In this document: piece after piece, positions 39,846 through 44,317 of the stretch
Position numbering within the stretch: the first letter of the stretch is position 1
Layout of the letters: every line of letters begins with the position of its first letter
Assembly (NCBI GenBank): GCA_944325895.1
Contig: CALVCA010000009.1
Coordinates: forward strand, 1 to 53,175
Origin: Candidatus Gastranaerophilales bacterium
Lineage (GTDB): Bacteria; Cyanobacteriota; Vampirovibrionia; Gastranaerophilales; Gastranaerophilaceae
Length of the DNA: 53,175 nt
Direction: 5' to 3'
The notes under the pieces: model-generated
Databases searched by the model: none
Told to the model about the DNA's origin: nothing
The model's input: the letters and a program-made list of their open reading frames with translations, nothing else
Program-made: the position numbers and the translations under genes

Positions 39846-41196
39846 GTCTGCCTCCAAGTGCTAAAAATATTGCTTTAACAAGAATACTCAAATCCCAAAG
39901 CAAATTCCTGTGTTTTATATAATACAAATCATATTGAAGTTTTATAGCTTCATTGTCAGATGCAAAACAATACCCCTGATTAATTTGTGCCCAACCGGTC
40001 CAGGCAGTATCAACAAGCATTCTAAGGGTATATCCCGGAATTTCTTTAGAGTATATTTCTGCAACTTTTGTCCATTCTGCTCTTGGTCCTACTATTGACA
40101 TTTCACCTTTTAGTATGTTTATCATCTGAAAAATTTCATCAAAACGTGCTTTTCTTACAAATCTACAAAACGGGATTACACGGTCATCTTCTTCCTGATT
40201 TTCAACATAACCGACTTTTTTATCATCATTCGGAATAAAATCGTTTGCGTACATTGTTCTTAATTTATATGCATTAAATATTTTTCCGTTTTTTCCGACC
40301 CTTTCCTGAGTAAACACAGGCGATTTGCCGTCTGTTAATTTGACCCTTAATGCGATATAGCCTGTTATAGGCAATGTAACCGTTAATATAATTAAAGCTG
40401 CAATTATATCAAAAATTCGTTTAAAAAAATTATAAAGCTTTGAATTATGCGTTTGAAAATAGTAAATAAATTCACTAATTGTATTCTCATCAATATAATA
40501 TTTTCTTGTGACAAGTTCATAAAAATCATACATCCTATACACTCTGACATGCCTCGGAATAACATTATTTGACAACAACGACAATGCAAAAAGTTCATCA
40601 AAAGGTTTGTCATTGGCTGTTATTATAATATCAATGTTTAAATCTTTAATTTTATTGCGTAATTCATCTATTCTGTTATTAACCGTTTCATAATCATTAT
40701 TGCAATTTATATATTCAAAATTTTCAATAACTTGCATTTTTAGAGCATATTTTTCATTTATTAATTCCGTAATAACGTCGGATAAATTGCCGCTGCCAAT
40801 TATTAATACGTTTTTTATTTTTTTTAAATTAAACAAATAATAATGAAAAATTATTCTGTATAATAATAAAAATCCCCATATAGTGAATAAATCAAATAAA
40901 ATAAATAATATAAAATTTGTCTTTAAAAAATATAATATCAAAGCTGCCGGCAGTAGCGTAAAAATACACGCCTCAAAAAGCAAATAAATATTTTTTGCTG
41001 TAATATTGAATTCTCTGATTTTATAGTTATCTTTCAAAAATAAAGTAGCAAGTCCGCAGGTTATGACAGCAATATATGTAAGCCACAAAAAACCTTCCGG
41101 CATCTTAAAATAAGAATACCAAAAAACAGTAGCACAACTTAAAACTACAAAATCATACAAAAATAAAAAAATAACAGACTTTGATAAAAATTTCAT
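39838..41196 (-). CDS. Polyprenyl-phosphate sugar phosphotransferase (WbaP/WcaJ type)
   Basis: A 452-residue initiating glycosyl-1-phosphate transferase. N-terminal transmembrane helices (VIFLFLYDFVVLSCATVFW, LWLTYIAVITCGLATLF and more) are followed by a CoA-binding-like Rossmann domain (VLIIGSGNLSDVITELI). The bacterial sugar transferase domain contains KRIFDIIAALIILTVTLP, PVFTQERVGKNGK, FNAYKLRTM, RKARFDEIFQMINILKGEMSIVGPR. It loads the first sugar onto undecaprenyl phosphate for exopolysaccharide or capsule. Sits with the epimerase and may be regulated from a palindrome-rich upstream region. Confidence 0.92.
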   Translation of the reverse strand: MKFLSKSVIFLFLYDFVVLSCATVFWYSYFKMPEGFLWLTYIAVITCGLATLFLKDNYKIREFNITAKNIYLLFEACIFTLLPAALILYFLKTNFILFILFDLFTIWGFLLLYRIIFHYYLFNLKKIKNVLIIGSGNLSDVITELINEKYALKMQVIENFEYINCNNDYETVNNRIDELRNKIKDLNIDIIITANDKPFDELFALSLLSNNVIPRHVRVYRMYDFYELVTRKYYIDENTISEFIYYFQTHNSKLYNFFKRIFDIIAALIILTVTLPITGYIALRVKLTDGKSPVFTQERVGKNGKIFNAYKLRTMYANDFIPNDDKKVGYVENQEEDDRVIPFCRFVRKARFDEIFQMINILKGEMSIVGPRAEWTKVAEIYSKEIPGYTLRMLVDTAWTGWAQINQGYCFASDNEAIKLQYDLYYIKHRNLLWDLSILVKAIFLALGGRHA

Positions 41197-41236
41197 AGCA
41201 ACAACCTCATGATAAAATGTAATATCCTATACATTA

Positions 41237-41353
41237 TGTATGAAATGTATTGGACGCAATGAAATCAAACCTGTAGCGTATGATAAAATTAATATTAATA
41301 TTAATAAATATTTGTATTATAATGGTAATTGAAATTTCTATACATTTCATACA
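41237..41353. repeat. 14-bp inverted repeat bracketing an AT-rich intergenic segment
   Basis: TGTATGAAATGTAT (41237-41250) and ATACATTTCATACA (41340-41353) are perfect inverted copies 89 bp apart, between the sugar transferase start and the integrase stop. The left copy overlaps another palindrome, ATACAT-T-ATGTAT (41229-41241), about 30 bp upstream of the transferase ATG. They could be operator sites or ends of a lost insertion; the sequence does not decide. Confidence 0.6.
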
Positions 41354-41358
41354 AAATG

Positions 41359-41898
41359 TTATAGAATAAAATCCAAATAGCTTTTATAGATTTGTTCTTG
41401 CTCTATACCAATGTATTTAAGCGTAATAAATGGGCTTGAATGATTGAAAATTTTTTGTAGCATAGCAATATCTTTATATTTTTTATAATGATGATAGCCG
41501 AAAGTTTTCCTCATAGTATGAGTGCCGAATTTTTCATCAGAGATTATGACCTTACATGCATCACGAATAATATAATATGCAGTTACACGGCTTAACCTGT
41601 TTCCGAATTTTGTAATAAAAAGAGGCTCATCCAAGGATCTTTTTAGAGTAAATTCTTTTAACAACGGCTTGAGTTTTGAATTTATAGGGAATTTTTTTAA
41701 TTTTTTTGTTTTAGTTTCAATAATTTGAATATAATTTTTATTTTTTACATCACCGACATCAAGAGCTAGAATATCTGAAATTCTGAGCCCGCAATTTATT
41801 CCCAGCGTAAAAAGAAGCAAATCTCTTTTATTTGGTGATAATATTTTTTCAATTTTTCTTAAATCCTTTAAATTTCTGATTGGTTCTACAGTACTCAT
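41359..41898 (-). CDS. Compact tyrosine recombinase (integrase), catalytic domain only
   Basis: A 179-residue site-specific recombinase lacking the usual N-terminal SAM-like DNA-binding domain. All catalytic residues are visible: Arg39 (CGLRISD), Lys in KTKKLKKF (about 63-66), His127 and Arg130 (HTMRKTFGYH), His153 (FNHSSP) and Tyr162 (LKYIG). AAAGGA precedes the ATG. It lies next to tRNA-His, whose 3' end is duplicated nearby, consistent with an integrase targeting that tRNA, although it faces away from the tRNA. Small catalytic-only recombinases also act in inversion switches, so its job is unproven. Confidence 0.88.
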   Translation of the reverse strand: MSTVEPIRNLKDLRKIEKILSPNKRDLLLFTLGINCGLRISDILALDVGDVKNKNYIQIIETKTKKLKKFPINSKLKPLLKEFTLKRSLDEPLFITKFGNRLSRVTAYYIIRDACKVIISDEKFGTHTMRKTFGYHHYKKYKDIAMLQKIFNHSSPFITLKYIGIEQEQIYKSYLDFIL

Positions 41899-41924
41899 AA
41901 TTAAATCCTTTCATTTTTAATATA

Positions 41925-41952
41925 TAGACAAAAAATATTTTTATGATAAAAT
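41925..41952 (+). promoter_or_regulatory. tRNA-His promoter
   Basis: TAGACA (41925-41930), a 16-bp spacer and TAAAAT (41947-41952) preceded by TGA (extended -10). Initiation near 41959 would start the precursor about 6 nt before the tRNA. Confidence 0.5.
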
Positions 41953-41964
41953 AATTATGAAGAT

Positions 41965-42041
41965 GGCGTCTGTCGTCAAGCGGTTAAGACCTCGGATTGT
42001 GGTTCCGATATGCATGGGTTCGAATCCCATCAGACGCCCCA
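41965..42041 (+). tRNA. tRNA-His (anticodon GTG)
   Basis: The cloverleaf folds fully: G-1 at 41965, acceptor GCGTCTG/CAGACGC, D arm, anticodon stem TCGGA/TCCGA with loop TTGTGGT (anticodon GTG, His), T stem ATGGG/CCCAT with TTCGAAT, discriminator C pairing with the encoded G-1, and encoded CCA at 42039-42041. The G-1:C73 pair is diagnostic of tRNA-His. Confidence 0.97.
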
Positions 42042-42078
42042 TAAAATCGGTTATAACATTTTGTTATGACCGATTTTA
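42042..42078 (+). terminator. Long AT-rich hairpin directly after tRNA-His
   Basis: TAAAATCGGT (42042-42051) pairs perfectly with ACCGATTTTA (42069-42078), and the stem continues inward through TATAACA/TGTTATG. About 17 bp near-perfect with a T loop, ending TTTTATT. Probably terminates the tRNA; a second, more conventional terminator is found after the tRNA-end duplicate. Confidence 0.65.
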
Positions 42079-42083
42079 TTATG

Positions 42084-42220
42084 AGGTTTGTAGATAGAGA
42101 TGAGAACCACCAAGCGGAGCTTGGTTTAGGTTCGAGCGACCTGTGAGCAGAGTGCTTTTGCAAAAAAGAACGTAATTCTTTGAAGCAAAACACGTAGACA
42201 CGTTTAACGCAAACAGGTCA
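42084..42220. repeat. Hairpin-rich module between tRNA-His and its duplicated 3' end
   Basis: No credible coding region. A run of short hairpins is visible: ACCAAGC/GCTTGGT (42109-42125), AGGT/ACCT (42128-42142), AGCA/TGCT (42146-42156) and AAAGAA/TTCTTT (about 42164-42180). An outer 7-bp pairing, GACCTGT (42138-42144) with ACAGGTC (42213-42219), encloses the last two. It looks like a structured RNA or REP-type element. Other copies in the genome cannot be checked here. Confidence 0.5.
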
Positions 42221-42223
42221 AGA

Positions 42224-42241
42224 GAATCCCAACAGACGCCC
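42224..42241 (+). repeat. Imperfect copy of the tRNA-His 3' end (att-like site)
   Basis: GAATCCCAACAGACGCCC matches the tRNA-His T-arm/acceptor end at 42022-42039 in 17 of 18 bases, 202 bp downstream. Direct duplication of a tRNA 3' end is the standard footprint of integration by a tyrosine recombinase, and one is encoded at 41359-41898. Confidence 0.7.
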
Positions 42242-42253
42242 ATTTTTTAAGAA

Positions 42254-42276
42254 TAGACCCTTTTGGGTCTTTTTTA
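42254..42276 (+). terminator. Rho-independent terminator after the tRNA-end copy
   Basis: AGACCC (42255-42260), TTTT loop, GGGTCT (42265-42270), then a T run. It lies 13 bp after the tRNA-end copy and may be the original terminator of tRNA-His, displaced by an insertion. Confidence 0.8.
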
Positions 42277-42297
42277 TTGCTATATCTGTGTTTCAAC

Positions 42298-42309
42298 AGT
42301 TCGAACAAA
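42298..42309 (+). repeat. 12-bp direct repeat, left copy
   Basis: AGTTCGAACAAA recurs exactly at 42916-42927, and both copies contain the T-loop-like TTCGAA. The pair brackets the small ORF and the toxin-antitoxin-like locus (618 bp apart). Confidence 0.5.
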
Positions 42310-42346
42310 ATTCCATAATTTAAAAATTTAAATTACCTTGAAAACC

Positions 42347-42523
42347 TTAACCCTTATGCATTTTACGTTTTGATAACATAGATTCTGCTTGTTGGGATTC
42401 GAATTCAATTTTTTCCTTTAAAGTTGTGCTTCAAATAATAAGCATATTTTTTCATTTTTGCTTGTTGTATCTTCGTATTTTAACAGGTACTCCGTCAATT
42501 ACGAATTCTTTAATATATTTCAT
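42347..42523 (-). CDS. Small hypothetical protein, 58 residues
   Basis: Read from ATG 42523 to TAA 42347. The sequence starts MKYIKEFVIDGVPVKYEDTT and ends in a charged helix (LLKEKIEFESQQAESML) with a basic tail SKRKMHKG. The composition is protein-like: a short beta strand, then a long amphipathic helix. There is no Shine-Dalgarno. It is divergent from the toxin-like gene. No family is recognised; it could be real or a chance ORF. Confidence 0.4.
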
Positions 42524-42668
42524 AATTGATATATAATTGTATTTGTAAATAAATCAACATGAACATTGAAAATATAAACACAGGGTAAAAGGAACTCTTT
42601 TCTAAAGGAAACTAACCGGCAATATCATTGTAGACCTCGGGTTAGCCCCGACTAGAAAGGAGGTTGAT

Positions 42669-42758
42669 ATGAGCGATTTCAATTTGAGTATATTTTTAAT
42701 CCTTTTGATTTTGTGCATATTAAAAACGGTTCTTATTCCTAAGAATAAGAACCGTTAG
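42669..42758 (+). CDS. Small hydrophobic peptide, candidate type I toxin
   Basis: 29 codons from ATG 42669 to TAG 42756-42758. The start is set by a near-perfect Shine-Dalgarno AAAGGAGG (42656-42663) five bases upstream, the strongest in this region. The peptide is MSDFNLS, then a run of Ile/Leu/Phe long enough for one membrane helix (SIFLILLILCILKTVLI), then a basic tail PKNKNR. Size, a single helix and charged tail fit membrane-acting type I toxins (Fst/Ldr/TxpA-like) by architecture, not by recognised homology. The last third of the gene forms the hairpin that ends the antisense RNA. Confidence 0.65.
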   Translation: MSDFNLSIFLILLILCILKTVLIPKNKNR

Positions 42759-42801
42759 ACCTCTACAGAGTTCCCGATAGTCTGACAAACTATCACCCTG
42801 T
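42722..42801 (-). ncRNA. Predicted antisense RNA (antitoxin) of about 80 nt
   Basis: Expected to start about 42801 from a consensus minus-strand promoter and to end after the 42755-42726 hairpin, which on this strand is followed by TTTTT. It is fully complementary to the 3' part of the toxin message. It carries the complement of TAGACCTC at 42756-42763, and the same 8 bases occur at 42631-42638 just before the toxin ribosome-binding site, so it could also pair there and block translation, as RNA II does in the Fst par system. Confidence 0.6.
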
Positions 42802-42807
42802 GTTTTT

Positions 42808-42836
42808 ATTATAAATTATCTTTTTCTATTTTTCAA
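42808..42836 (-). promoter_or_regulatory. Strong antisense promoter
   Basis: On the minus strand, TTGAAA (42836-42831), exactly 17 bp, then TATAAT (42813-42808): a near-consensus sigma70 promoter pointing into the toxin gene. Confidence 0.75.
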
Positions 42837-42915
42837 CCCCATTGATAAAATTTTCTATTTCGATATGAAGTAATATTAGTTTATAAGAACATAAAATCGG
42901 GTGTAAAGCTTTAAG

Positions 42916-42951
42916 AGTTCGAACAAAGTCCTATCATCTACCCCATAAAAT
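42916..42951 (+). repeat. Second 12-bp direct repeat, with a tRNA-end-like sequence
   Basis: AGTTCGAACAAA (42916-42927) repeats 42298-42309. It runs into CCCCATAAAAT (42941-42951), identical to the tRNA-His end and downstream bases (42037-42047). ATAAAATCGG at 42891-42900 is also shared with 42041-42050. These look like degraded tRNA-end/att fragments. Confidence 0.45.
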
Positions 42952-43029
42952 ATCAGATCTTTTTAGTTTTGTGTTTCTTATTTTTACATAAAAACTACGG
43001 GAAATTGAACTATTTTAAAACTAAATTCT

Positions 43030-43809
43030 TTAATCAGAATTTCTGCATAGTTTTAAATACTTTGCCAATTCTTTTTCAGCATATTTTATTTTTGATTTTA
43101 TATGAATATTCTTAATCAAATGTATTTTTAAATTGAATGCATCTTTTAATTTTCTATTTTTTAAAAAGTATTTTACTACCTGATTATAAGCATTGTGTTC
43201 GGATTTCAGACAATATCGCAGCTTTTGAAGCAAATCTACCGCAATTTCCGGTGTTAATTGCTTTAACAATTTATCCGATTTTTGTTTTACTTCATTCATT
43301 GGCATATCAACTTTAGCAGATAATATATTTTTTAATTCAGCAGCTGTATCAATTAATTTAACATTATTTAACAACTTACCATTACGATAAATATTATATT
43401 TAGGGTTAAAAATTCTATCAAACATATGCCTGGTTTCATGCAATGCGGTGTATTTACTAATTTTACCGTCATCATCCTGCTTAACCAAAATTTTATATCC
43501 AATATGATTAACTACAAAATTGTCTTTACCGGTTTTCTTAAATTGAAATTCATTAACAAAACTTCCTGAATAATTAGGGTTTTGTTCCGGCAGGATTTTG
43601 TAATTAACCTTATGCGGAAACATCGTAAAATCTAAGATATTTTTAAAATCTTCAACTGTGCATTTTCCATTTTGACATCTGCTATCCAGGAGTATAAAAA
43701 ATTCTTCCGCATAATGTGCAGCTTTGAAATTACGACCTTCGACAGTACCTCTGACCATATTATATGGGAATTTTATAGTTGGTGATATAAAATTTTTAAT
43801 TTTAAACAT
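43030..43809 (-). CDS. Hypothetical protein with HExxH motif
   Basis: A 259-residue protein without signal peptide. HETRHMFD (His124-Glu125-x-x-His128) sits in a helix after a beta strand, as in zincin metallopeptidases, but no third ligand motif is clear; Glu213 in KSEHNAYNQ is a candidate. The C-terminal third is strongly basic and helical. It overlaps ogt by 8 bp, so the two share a transcript. A peptidase role is a hypothesis only. Confidence 0.65.
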   Translation of the reverse strand: MFKIKNFISPTIKFPYNMVRGTVEGRNFKAAHYAEEFFILLDSRCQNGKCTVEDFKNILDFTMFPHKVNYKILPEQNPNYSGSFVNEFQFKKTGKDNFVVNHIGYKILVKQDDDGKISKYTALHETRHMFDRIFNPKYNIYRNGKLLNNVKLIDTAAELKNILSAKVDMPMNEVKQKSDKLLKQLTPEIAVDLLQKLRYCLKSEHNAYNQVVKYFLKNRKLKDAFNLKIHLIKNIHIKSKIKYAEKELAKYLKLCRNSD

Positions 43810-44317
43810 TTTTTTCTAATTCCAATAGTTTTGCTTTTAAATCTAATCCCCACGCATAACCTGTCAGCTTTCCATTCTTGCCAATTACTCTATGGCAGGG
43901 GATAATAATCATTATAGGGTTATGTCCGATTGCATTTCCGACAGCTCTTGCAGACATTTTTGTTTTATTCAATTTTTTTGCCGTAATATCAGCAACTTCG
44001 CCATAAGAAATAGTTGTACCGTAAGGAATGGAGCATAAAATATCCCAAACAACCTGACGAAAGGAGGTCCCGTCAGGTTTTAGTTTAAGTTCACTTATGT
44101 TTGGTTTTTTATTTGAAAAATATTTATCTAACCAGTTTTTTGTTTCAGTAAAAATTTCAATGCAATCGTCATGAATAACATCATCACCGGGACGTAAACC
44201 GGTTAGACATACACCGTCACTTTCTAAAATTAATAAACCGAGCGGTGAATTGTATGTTGTTTTATAAATCTTCCGGATCAAGTTCTTCACTGTCGTGTAT
44301 TCTGTCACTGTTTTCAT
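43802..44317 (-). CDS. ogt: Methylated-DNA--protein-cysteine methyltransferase
   Basis: A 171-residue Ogt/MGMT that repairs O6-methylguanine by transferring the methyl to its own cysteine. The active site IIPCHRVIG is intact, with the helix-turn-helix FRQVVWDILCSIPYGTTISYGEVA and SARAVGNAIGHNP carrying the arginine finger; the GLDLKAKLLELE end is typical. The ATG at 44317 makes a 56-bp overlap with the upstream gene and leaves an unusual 15-residue leader before YKTTYNSPLG, so a later start (for example the TTG at codon 13) is possible. Confidence 0.94.
   Translation of the reverse strand: MKTVTEYTTVKNLIRKIYKTTYNSPLGLLILESDGVCLTGLRPGDDVIHDDCIEIFTETKNWLDKYFSNKKPNISELKLKPDGTSFRQVVWDILCSIPYGTTISYGEVADITAKKLNKTKMSARAVGNAIGHNPIMIIIPCHRVIGKNGKLTGYAWGLDLKAKLLELEKNV

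What the first reader, a model, noticed from the sequence alone, without database searches (positions are those of the whole stretch)
41359..42276. Integration footprint at tRNA-His: duplicated tRNA 3' end and a second terminator
The tRNA-His end GAATCCCATCAGACGCCC (42022-42039) recurs with one change at 42224-42241, immediately before a conventional terminator (42254-42276), while the intact tRNA has its own different hairpin (42042-42078). The simplest reading is that an element of about 200 bp inserted into the tRNA and restored its 3' end. A complete catalytic-domain tyrosine recombinase lies on the other flank. Use of tRNA 3' ends as att sites is established.
Basis: partly seen in the sequence, partly recalled or inferred. 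Interest (0 to 1): 0.55.

Follow-up and report, generated by a model that had tools for sequence, protein, structure and literature searches.

The report
Hairpin element stacked behind tRNA genes
The 200-base stretch behind this tRNA gene is one copy of an apparently undescribed family of folded, gene-less insertions that sit behind many different tRNA genes in a group of gut bacteria and whose arms match the tRNA they sit behind; what moves them, and why their sequence tracks the tRNA, is open.

Summary
In detail: the tRNA-His 3' end recurs at 42224-42241 with one change (0.01 matches expected). Insertion with restoration of the tRNA end is well supported. In G021 and G025 tRNA-His runs straight into a terminator like the one beyond the window's insert, with no second copy of the end in 1.5 kb. 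The segment is one copy of a dispersed family: covariance model R1 matches 41 of 59 genomes, the window's own included, and 121 of 240 of the class, every match listed being in the window's family; named carriers are mostly Gastranaerophilales. Of 201 distinct copies, 118 have a tRNA or tmRNA just upstream. The fold is a three-way junction with covariation, and its arms match the T-arm of the host tRNA beyond 1000 of 1000 shuffles. No Rfam family reaches its cut-off on it. The neighbouring tyrosine recombinase is probably unrelated: it borders an inverted-repeat switch, as do 12 of 20 homologues, and its gene number does not track element number. Movement by recombination in trans is inferred; no mover was found, and hairpin-driven spread or an RNA role remain open.

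The parts
41966..42041 (+). tRNA-His (anticodon GTG), intact; its 3' end is read here as supplied by the inserted element
42022..42039 (+). first copy of the direct repeat (T-loop to acceptor 3' strand)
42042..42078 (+). hairpin T1 (17 bp) directly behind the tRNA, read as element-borne; no T run
   Evidence: a near copy lies in the G015 tRNA-His array
42097..42101 (+). left strand of P1 (pairs 4 of 5 with 42226-42230)
   Evidence: alignment A2 and its fold; not formed in the single-sequence fold
42104..42108 (+). left strand of P2 (GAACC, complement of the tRNA T-arm strand GGTTC)
42129..42133 (+). right strand of P2 (GGTTC, copy of the tRNA T-arm 5' strand)
   Evidence: family test
42138..42219 (+). 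P3 core hairpin of the family; this copy lacks the CGGAGG-like stretch that most aligned members have
42096..42230 (+). whole match to covariance model R1
   Evidence: 131 bits (a seed of the model)
42224..42241 (+). second copy of the tRNA-His 3' end, one change; read as the displaced original end
   Evidence: empty sites
42255..42276 (+). terminator T2, like the one that follows tRNA-His directly in G021, G025 and G015
41359..41898 (-). catalytic-domain tyrosine recombinase, probably an invertase; not counted as part of the element
41231..41359 (.). inverted repeats 41231-41250 and 41340-41359 (95% complementary, 89 nt apart) with a promoter-like match 41295-41323 (+) between them: likely the recombinase's own switch

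Best explanation
The segment is one copy of a non-coding, structured insertion element that enters tRNA genes at the T-loop. Anatomy, in order: a replacement tRNA 3' end, a hairpin (T1), an arm P2 made of the host T-arm's 5' strand and its complement, a conserved core hairpin P3, the motif CAAGA, then the displaced original 3' end and original terminator. P1 pairs the displaced end with the left arm. Shown: the anatomy, the fold, the dispersed family, the strict polarity (same strand, downstream of the tRNA), the match of the arms to the host tRNA, and empty sites. Inferred: that the element moves, and that it moves by recombination between the tRNA 3' end it carries and that of a target gene, catalysed in trans by an enzyme not found here. 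Also inferred: that P1 and P2 sequester the duplicate end so that it does not disturb tRNA folding.
For: R1 matches in 41 of 59 genomes, own included, and 121 of 240 of the class. 57 of 101 hits have a tRNA within 400 nt upstream on the same strand, against 2.3% of 5000 random positions; 57 upstream-same, 1 upstream-opposite, 0 downstream. Over distinct copies 118 of 201. In 87 of 97 copies within 130 nt of a tRNA the displaced end matches that tRNA's end in at least 10 of 13 bases, 56 in all 13; for ends of other anticodons this happens in 296 of 8892 pairings. Covariation: 12 of 25 pairs with both-side changes, 93.3% of cells paired, 15-40% when slid by 1-3 columns; 20 of 25 pairs in 97 distinct rows fitted to the model. 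Arms match the own host: P1 right 4.47 of 5 vs 2.96 shuffled, P1 left 4.02 vs 3.46, P2 right 1.98 of 2 vs 1.40, P2 left 1.91 vs 1.54, 47 rows. Empty sites. Patchy presence: tRNA-His 3 of 29 loci of relatives; tmRNA 3 clear hits in 30 loci, the window's genome among them. Stacked units, and in G015 a tRNA-His end of the type of G025. The nearest core lies at the same tRNA in another genome for 40 of 118, shuffled mean 4.75, largest of 200 13, as expected of site-bound elements.
Against: No mover found: no coding version between core halves in 263 loci, some overlapping (of 269 left halves 221 have a right half within 100 bp, 2 at 390-412 bp, 46 none). G002, with 31 R1 matches, has five Phage_integrase hits that look like two Xer-type proteins and three short ones, and no long integrase (reading by length only). 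The same-tRNA clustering fits vertical descent as well. Both copies mostly agree on an encoded CCA (78 of 87; the two mixed classes are 5 and 4), so CCA gives no general polarity. tRNA-free copies exist, which a tRNA-specific recombinase would not explain. One of the five covariation measures on the small alignment, further pair types, is not above the shuffles (408 of 500 as high). If each element carried only its donor's end, arms that match many different hosts need an extra step (co-evolution or copying).
Confidence: 0.5

Rival explanations
1. A palindromic repeat spread by hairpin-driven template switching or hairpin-loop insertion (like Rickettsia palindromic elements), not by a recombinase. 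The core lands in loops of T-arms, terminators and other palindromes, and the arms become complementary by strand-switch copying.
For: Cores in non-tRNA palindromes, including hairpins whose outer arms differ between copies with nearly the same core (G002 copies L258, L259, L260), between two genes (L254) and in frame in a phage gene (L264). Arms fitted to each host. No tested mobilising gene correlates.
Against: Flanking inverted repeats exceed mismatched pairs only modestly: 16 of 94 above the 95% level of the mismatched pairs, about 5 expected. Strict polarity behind tRNAs and a duplicated 3' end are not predicted by loop insertion alone.
Confidence: 0.25
2. A vertically inherited functional RNA attached to tRNA transcripts (trailer or regulatory RNA), kept by selection.
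For: Conserved fold; more G-U than A-C cells outside one nearly fixed G-U pair, 72 against 40, which hints at the tRNA-sense strand (the alignment was fitted to the model, which favours G-U, and in P1 the two are 30 and 26); nearest cores at the same tRNA across genomes.
Against: Patchy at the same gene; from 6 to 44 R1 matches in five genomes of one genus; 20 listed genomes of the family without a match; a hairpin lies between tRNA and element.
Confidence: 0.2
3. One reading: insertion by the neighbouring tyrosine recombinase.
For: The gene encodes a tyrosine recombinase and ends 67 bases from the tRNA.
Against: Invertase-like inverted repeats at it and at 12 of 20 homologues; 8 of 36 genomes have elements and no such gene, 4 have the gene and no element.
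Confidence: 0.03
4. Plain local duplication of the tRNA end, with no element.
For: Tandem units occur (for example L133, L157, L137).
Against: The body between the repeats is shared by loci behind other tRNAs.
Confidence: 0.02

Closest known systems
Integrative elements and islands that use tRNA 3' ends as attachment sites (general knowledge)
   Same: Duplicated tRNA 3' end, restored tRNA, empty sites, stacking behind one tRNA
   Different: About 200 bp, no gene, one core family behind many anticodons (28 labels with tmRNA and one odd call), arms fitted to the host
E. coli tyrT repeats / rtT RNA, Rfam RF00391 (recalled; no paper seen)
   Same: Tandem non-coding units behind a tRNA that each contain its 3' end
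   Different: No match to the Rfam model; here many tRNAs and dispersed copies
Rickettsia palindromic elements (passages of PMC2635572 seen; in-frame insertion is recalled)
   Same: Short dispersed palindromic elements, one copy here in frame in a gene
   Different: Strong attachment to tRNA 3' ends; another host group; sequences not compared
REP elements with Y1 (RAYT) transposases (recalled)
   Same: Dispersed hairpin repeats possibly moved in trans
   Different: No R1 copy around 4 Y1 genes; correlation weak (rho 0.31, P 0.15, 23 genomes)

Membership tests
tRNA-targeted integrative element | direct repeat of the tRNA 3' end at both borders | tested here: met
tRNA-targeted integrative element | empty site in relatives | tested here: met
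   G021 and G025; G015 is not clean
tRNA-targeted integrative element | integrase encoded inside the element | tested here: not met
   no gene in the 200 bp; no coding version in the fetched loci
tRNA-targeted integrative element | excision as a circle | not testable with these tools
   no reads at hand
rtT RNA (RF00391) | match to the Rfam covariance model | tested here: not met
   not listed at E up to 1 for window 40000-44000 or ten family loci
Palindromic element (RPE-like) | palindromic fold, dispersed copies | tested here: met
Palindromic element (RPE-like) | insertion in frame within genes | tested here: inconclusive
   one phage ORF; no systematic count
REP / RAYT system | Y1 transposase gene flanked by the repeats | tested here: not met
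   0 R1 hits around 4 Y1 genes; further Y1 loci were fetched but not searched
IS110-type element | IS110 transposase (PF02371) in carrier genomes | tested here: not met
   1 of 23 genomes of the family has it, G021, which has no element
Invertase (FimB-like) for 41359-41898 | inverted repeats beside the gene | tested here: met
Integron attC site | recombination by IntI | not tested
   none

The most novel reading that the evidence does not exclude
A new class of mobile RNA- or DNA-hairpin element that copies its target on insertion: it enters the T-loop of almost any tRNA and builds both strands of its outer arms from that tRNA's own sequence, so that the duplicate tRNA end it leaves is locked into a three-way junction and the host tRNA stays functional.
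Probability: 0.2. Interest if true: 0.85.

Novelty: new variant of a known kind. Interest (0 to 1): 0.6.

Why it matters
A structured element matched in 121 of 240 genomes of the class, with no Rfam family that reaches its cut-off on it, sits at the 3' ends of essential tRNA genes. If it moves, it is very small for an element that uses tRNA ends and must have a mover that can be looked for. If its arms are rewritten at each tRNA, the rewriting mechanism would be new. It also explains stray tRNA ends in gut-bacterial genomes and separates them from a neighbouring phase-variation switch.

Tried and rejected
Neighbouring tyrosine recombinase as mover: rejected. Y1 transposase, IS110 and reverse transcriptase as movers: no support; RT rho 0.14, P 0.52 in 23 genomes. 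Long integrase in trans: of five genomes searched, G000, G010 and G021 have one or two open frames of 369-429 codons, G002 and G013 none; the viral record of L265 has no Phage_integrase match, but it may be a fragment. Coding version of the element: none seen. Known RNA family: none at its cut-off; sub-threshold Rfam matches in the ten loci lie on tRNAs or outside the element cores. Phage and plasmid records: no match; viral contigs: two.

First attempts at the arm-to-host test failed on register: 79 of 97 parsed, 48 for the P1 and P2-left tests; P1 was not beyond its shuffles; 32 of 97 parsed; P1 left 3.12, equal to the shuffle maximum, and not beyond it with one row per anticodon. One search uses the covariance-model register; of 101 rows it drops 46 without host or T-arm and 8 with gaps. 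The inverted-repeat test of flanks was weak. ARAGORN misses truncated tRNAs, so the share at tRNAs is a lower bound; on the other hand the nearest tRNA upstream need not always be the host.

Of the 228 hits were entered: five that repeat another locus were left out by hand (window, L006, L026 and two in L041). Identical copies and copies without a parsed core were then dropped, leaving 201. Fetched but not analysed: L290-L299 and most of L374-L379.

Literature: nothing on this element in the listings (tyrT/rtT; repeats, T-loop; Gastranaerophilales, repeat, tRNA; palindromic elements); two searches listed no paper. I saw listings and starts of abstracts only, and passages of PMC2635572. The library holds open-licence papers only, so absence there is weak.

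Full report
Check of the observation. The tRNA-His gene (41966-42041) ends in GAATCCCATCAGACGCCC, and this recurs with one change at 42224-42241; within three mismatches there is no other site in 53 kb and 0.01 would be expected. The hairpin behind the tRNA (42042-42078) is strong but has no T run; the only terminator-like site called in 41150-42320 is 42255-42270.

Empty sites. A search of 59 genomes, the window's own included, with 41930-42300 found tRNA-His or pieces of the insert in 50. In G021 and G025 the tRNA runs straight into a GACCC..GGGTC terminator like the window's second one, and no second copy of the end follows in the 1.5 kb held. G015 has such a terminator too, but a second copy of the end lies about 0.9 kb on. 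R1 finds the element at 3 of 29 tRNA-His loci of relatives (G007, G011, G016); some of the others end at a contig end soon after the tRNA and cannot show absence.

A dispersed family. The insert body matched loci behind tRNA-Asn, Lys, Leu, Arg, Asp, Val and Ser genes. Sixteen copies were aligned, folded and made into covariance model R1. R1 has matches in 41 of 59 genomes, own included, at E 0.01, 6 to 44 matches in six genomes searched more fully at E 0.05, and in 121 of 240 genomes of the class at E 1e-5; the 121 matching genomes listed are of the window's family, as are the 20 listed without a match, and 99 more without a match are not listed. At E 0.01 some genomes of other families of the order match more weakly.

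Attachment to tRNAs. Of 101 R1 hits in the first 80 named loci, 57 have a tRNA within 400 nt upstream on the same strand; of 5000 random positions in the same loci, 2.3% do. One hit has a tRNA upstream on the other strand and none has one downstream. Pooled, 223 hits gave 201 distinct copies with a recognisable core, 118 of them with a tRNA or tmRNA within 450 nt upstream, under 28 labels, one of which is a doubtful call. Not all of the other 83 are free of tRNA: some sit behind ends that ARAGORN missed. Of 97 copies within 130 nt of a tRNA, 87 end in a recognisable second copy of that tRNA's 3' end, 56 with 13 of 13 bases; ends of other anticodons pass the same test in 296 of 8892 pairings. 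The second copy usually begins in the T-loop, right after CAAGA and one more base.

Structure. RNAalifold gives a three-way junction. On the MAFFT alignment 93.3% of cells pair, 12 of 25 pairs show changes on both sides, and sliding the partner by one to three columns drops pairing to 15-40%; four of five measures exceed all 500 shuffles, further pair types do not. On 97 distinct rows fitted to the model the numbers are 90.2% and 20 of 25 (this alignment leans to the structure). Outside one nearly fixed G-U pair there are 72 G-U against 40 A-C cells, which hints that the tRNA-sense strand is the folded one, with the same caveat. The window copy folds with z -3.3; P2 and P3 form in that fold, P1 does not. 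In the window, P1 left is 42097-42101, P2 is 42104-42108 with 42129-42133, P3 42138-42219, and P1 right 42226-42230 lies in the second tRNA copy.

Arms tuned to the host. P1 right and P2 right are copies of the host's own T-arm, P1 left and P2 left their complements. Over 47 rows with host and full arms, all four match the own host better than in any of 1000 shuffles, and the same holds with one row for each of 21 anticodons. Two earlier tries with regular expressions were poorly registered and weaker, and did not support P1. Either the arms co-evolve with the duplicated end, or insertion copies the target.

Spread. For 40 of 118 copies the nearest core lies at the same tRNA in another genome (4.75 expected, maximum 13 in 200 shuffles); for 6 it lies at another tRNA in the same genome (1.26 expected, maximum 6). 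So lineages are tied to tRNAs, by site-specific exchange or by descent. Presence is patchy: at tmRNA there are 3 clear hits in 30 loci (G000, G005, G016) and two weak ones, one of them upstream of the tmRNA; at tRNA-Asp some genus members have R1-type copies, some other cores and some neither. Units stack: tandem copies, a 1.5-kb insert with a NERD gene between tRNA-Asp and the R1 copy in G013, and other inserts in G015. The G015 tRNA-His array contains the end CCACTATCCGCCCC, which is not that of its own tRNA but identical to that of G025: a sign of transfer that carried a foreign tRNA end. In G000 tRNA-Asp lacks CCA while the displaced copy has it, and 10 of 13 tRNA-Asp ends printed for the genus have CCA, but over 87 copies this is no rule.

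The tyrosine recombinase. The gene 41359-41898 is a catalytic-domain-only recombinase with matches at E 1e-15 in 30 of 59 genomes, own included. A 20-nt inverted-repeat pair encloses 89 nt between it and a sugar-transferase gene, with a promoter-like match inside. Of 20 homologues, 12 have such a pair downstream and 3 one upstream. Gene number and element number are uncorrelated. It is best read as a phase-variation invertase and not as the element's integrase.

The mover. IS110, Y1 and reverse-transcriptase families do not track the element, no coding version appeared, and G002, with 31 R1 matches, shows no long integrase. Recombination in trans between tRNA ends remains my first choice because of repeat, polarity, stacking, tRNA-bound lineages and the foreign end. 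Hairpin-driven spread is the main rival because of tRNA-free copies with location-specific outer arms and an in-frame copy in a phage gene.

Known or new. No Rfam family reaches its cut-off on it and none of the paper searches named in Tried and rejected listed it; the library is partial. It works like a tRNA-end integrative element and resembles palindromic repeats, but membership of either is not proven.

Noticed in passing
41231-41359: Inverted repeats around 89 nt with a promoter-like match, between a sugar-transferase gene and a short tyrosine recombinase: a likely phase-variation switch for surface polysaccharide.
   Followed up: partly
42669-42758 (+): A 29-residue hydrophobic peptide frame (MSDFNLSIFLILLILCILKTVLIPKNKNR) in a structured stretch, reminiscent of type I toxins (recalled); similar flanking sequence recurs in L063 (G013) and near tRNA-His in G015.
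   Followed up: no
L010 1610-1839; L361; L365, L370, L098, L118: At least two other core types seem to use the same frame behind tRNAs: one with CTCGGCAGAGT, one with GCGGATTTGCGGACGG.
   Followed up: partly
L052, L033, L112, L139: Partial copies of the tRNA 5' end (about to the D-loop) followed by other inserts lie upstream of intact tRNAs: a mirror image of the 3' insertions.
   Followed up: no
L107-L109, L251-L253, L120, L244-L250: tRNA-free, near-identical copies of related cores inside larger mosaic intergenic repeats in G002 and G010.
   Followed up: partly
L264 381-962 (-): A core in frame inside a phage protein gene on a viral contig.
   Followed up: partly
L265: Viral contig with an element and a tRNA-Val-like 3' end near its end; it also has a reverse-transcriptase-like ORF with YMDD.
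   Followed up: partly
L362 (G000:C41): An element behind a tRNA-like 3' end with no 5' half found; genes with DUF3800 and DUF4145 lie on that side, as if an island had entered the same T-loop.
   Followed up: partly
L254 (G002:C8:52744-52863): A core directly after a stop codon between two frames that look like ribosomal-protein genes (their identity is recalled, not searched).
   Followed up: no
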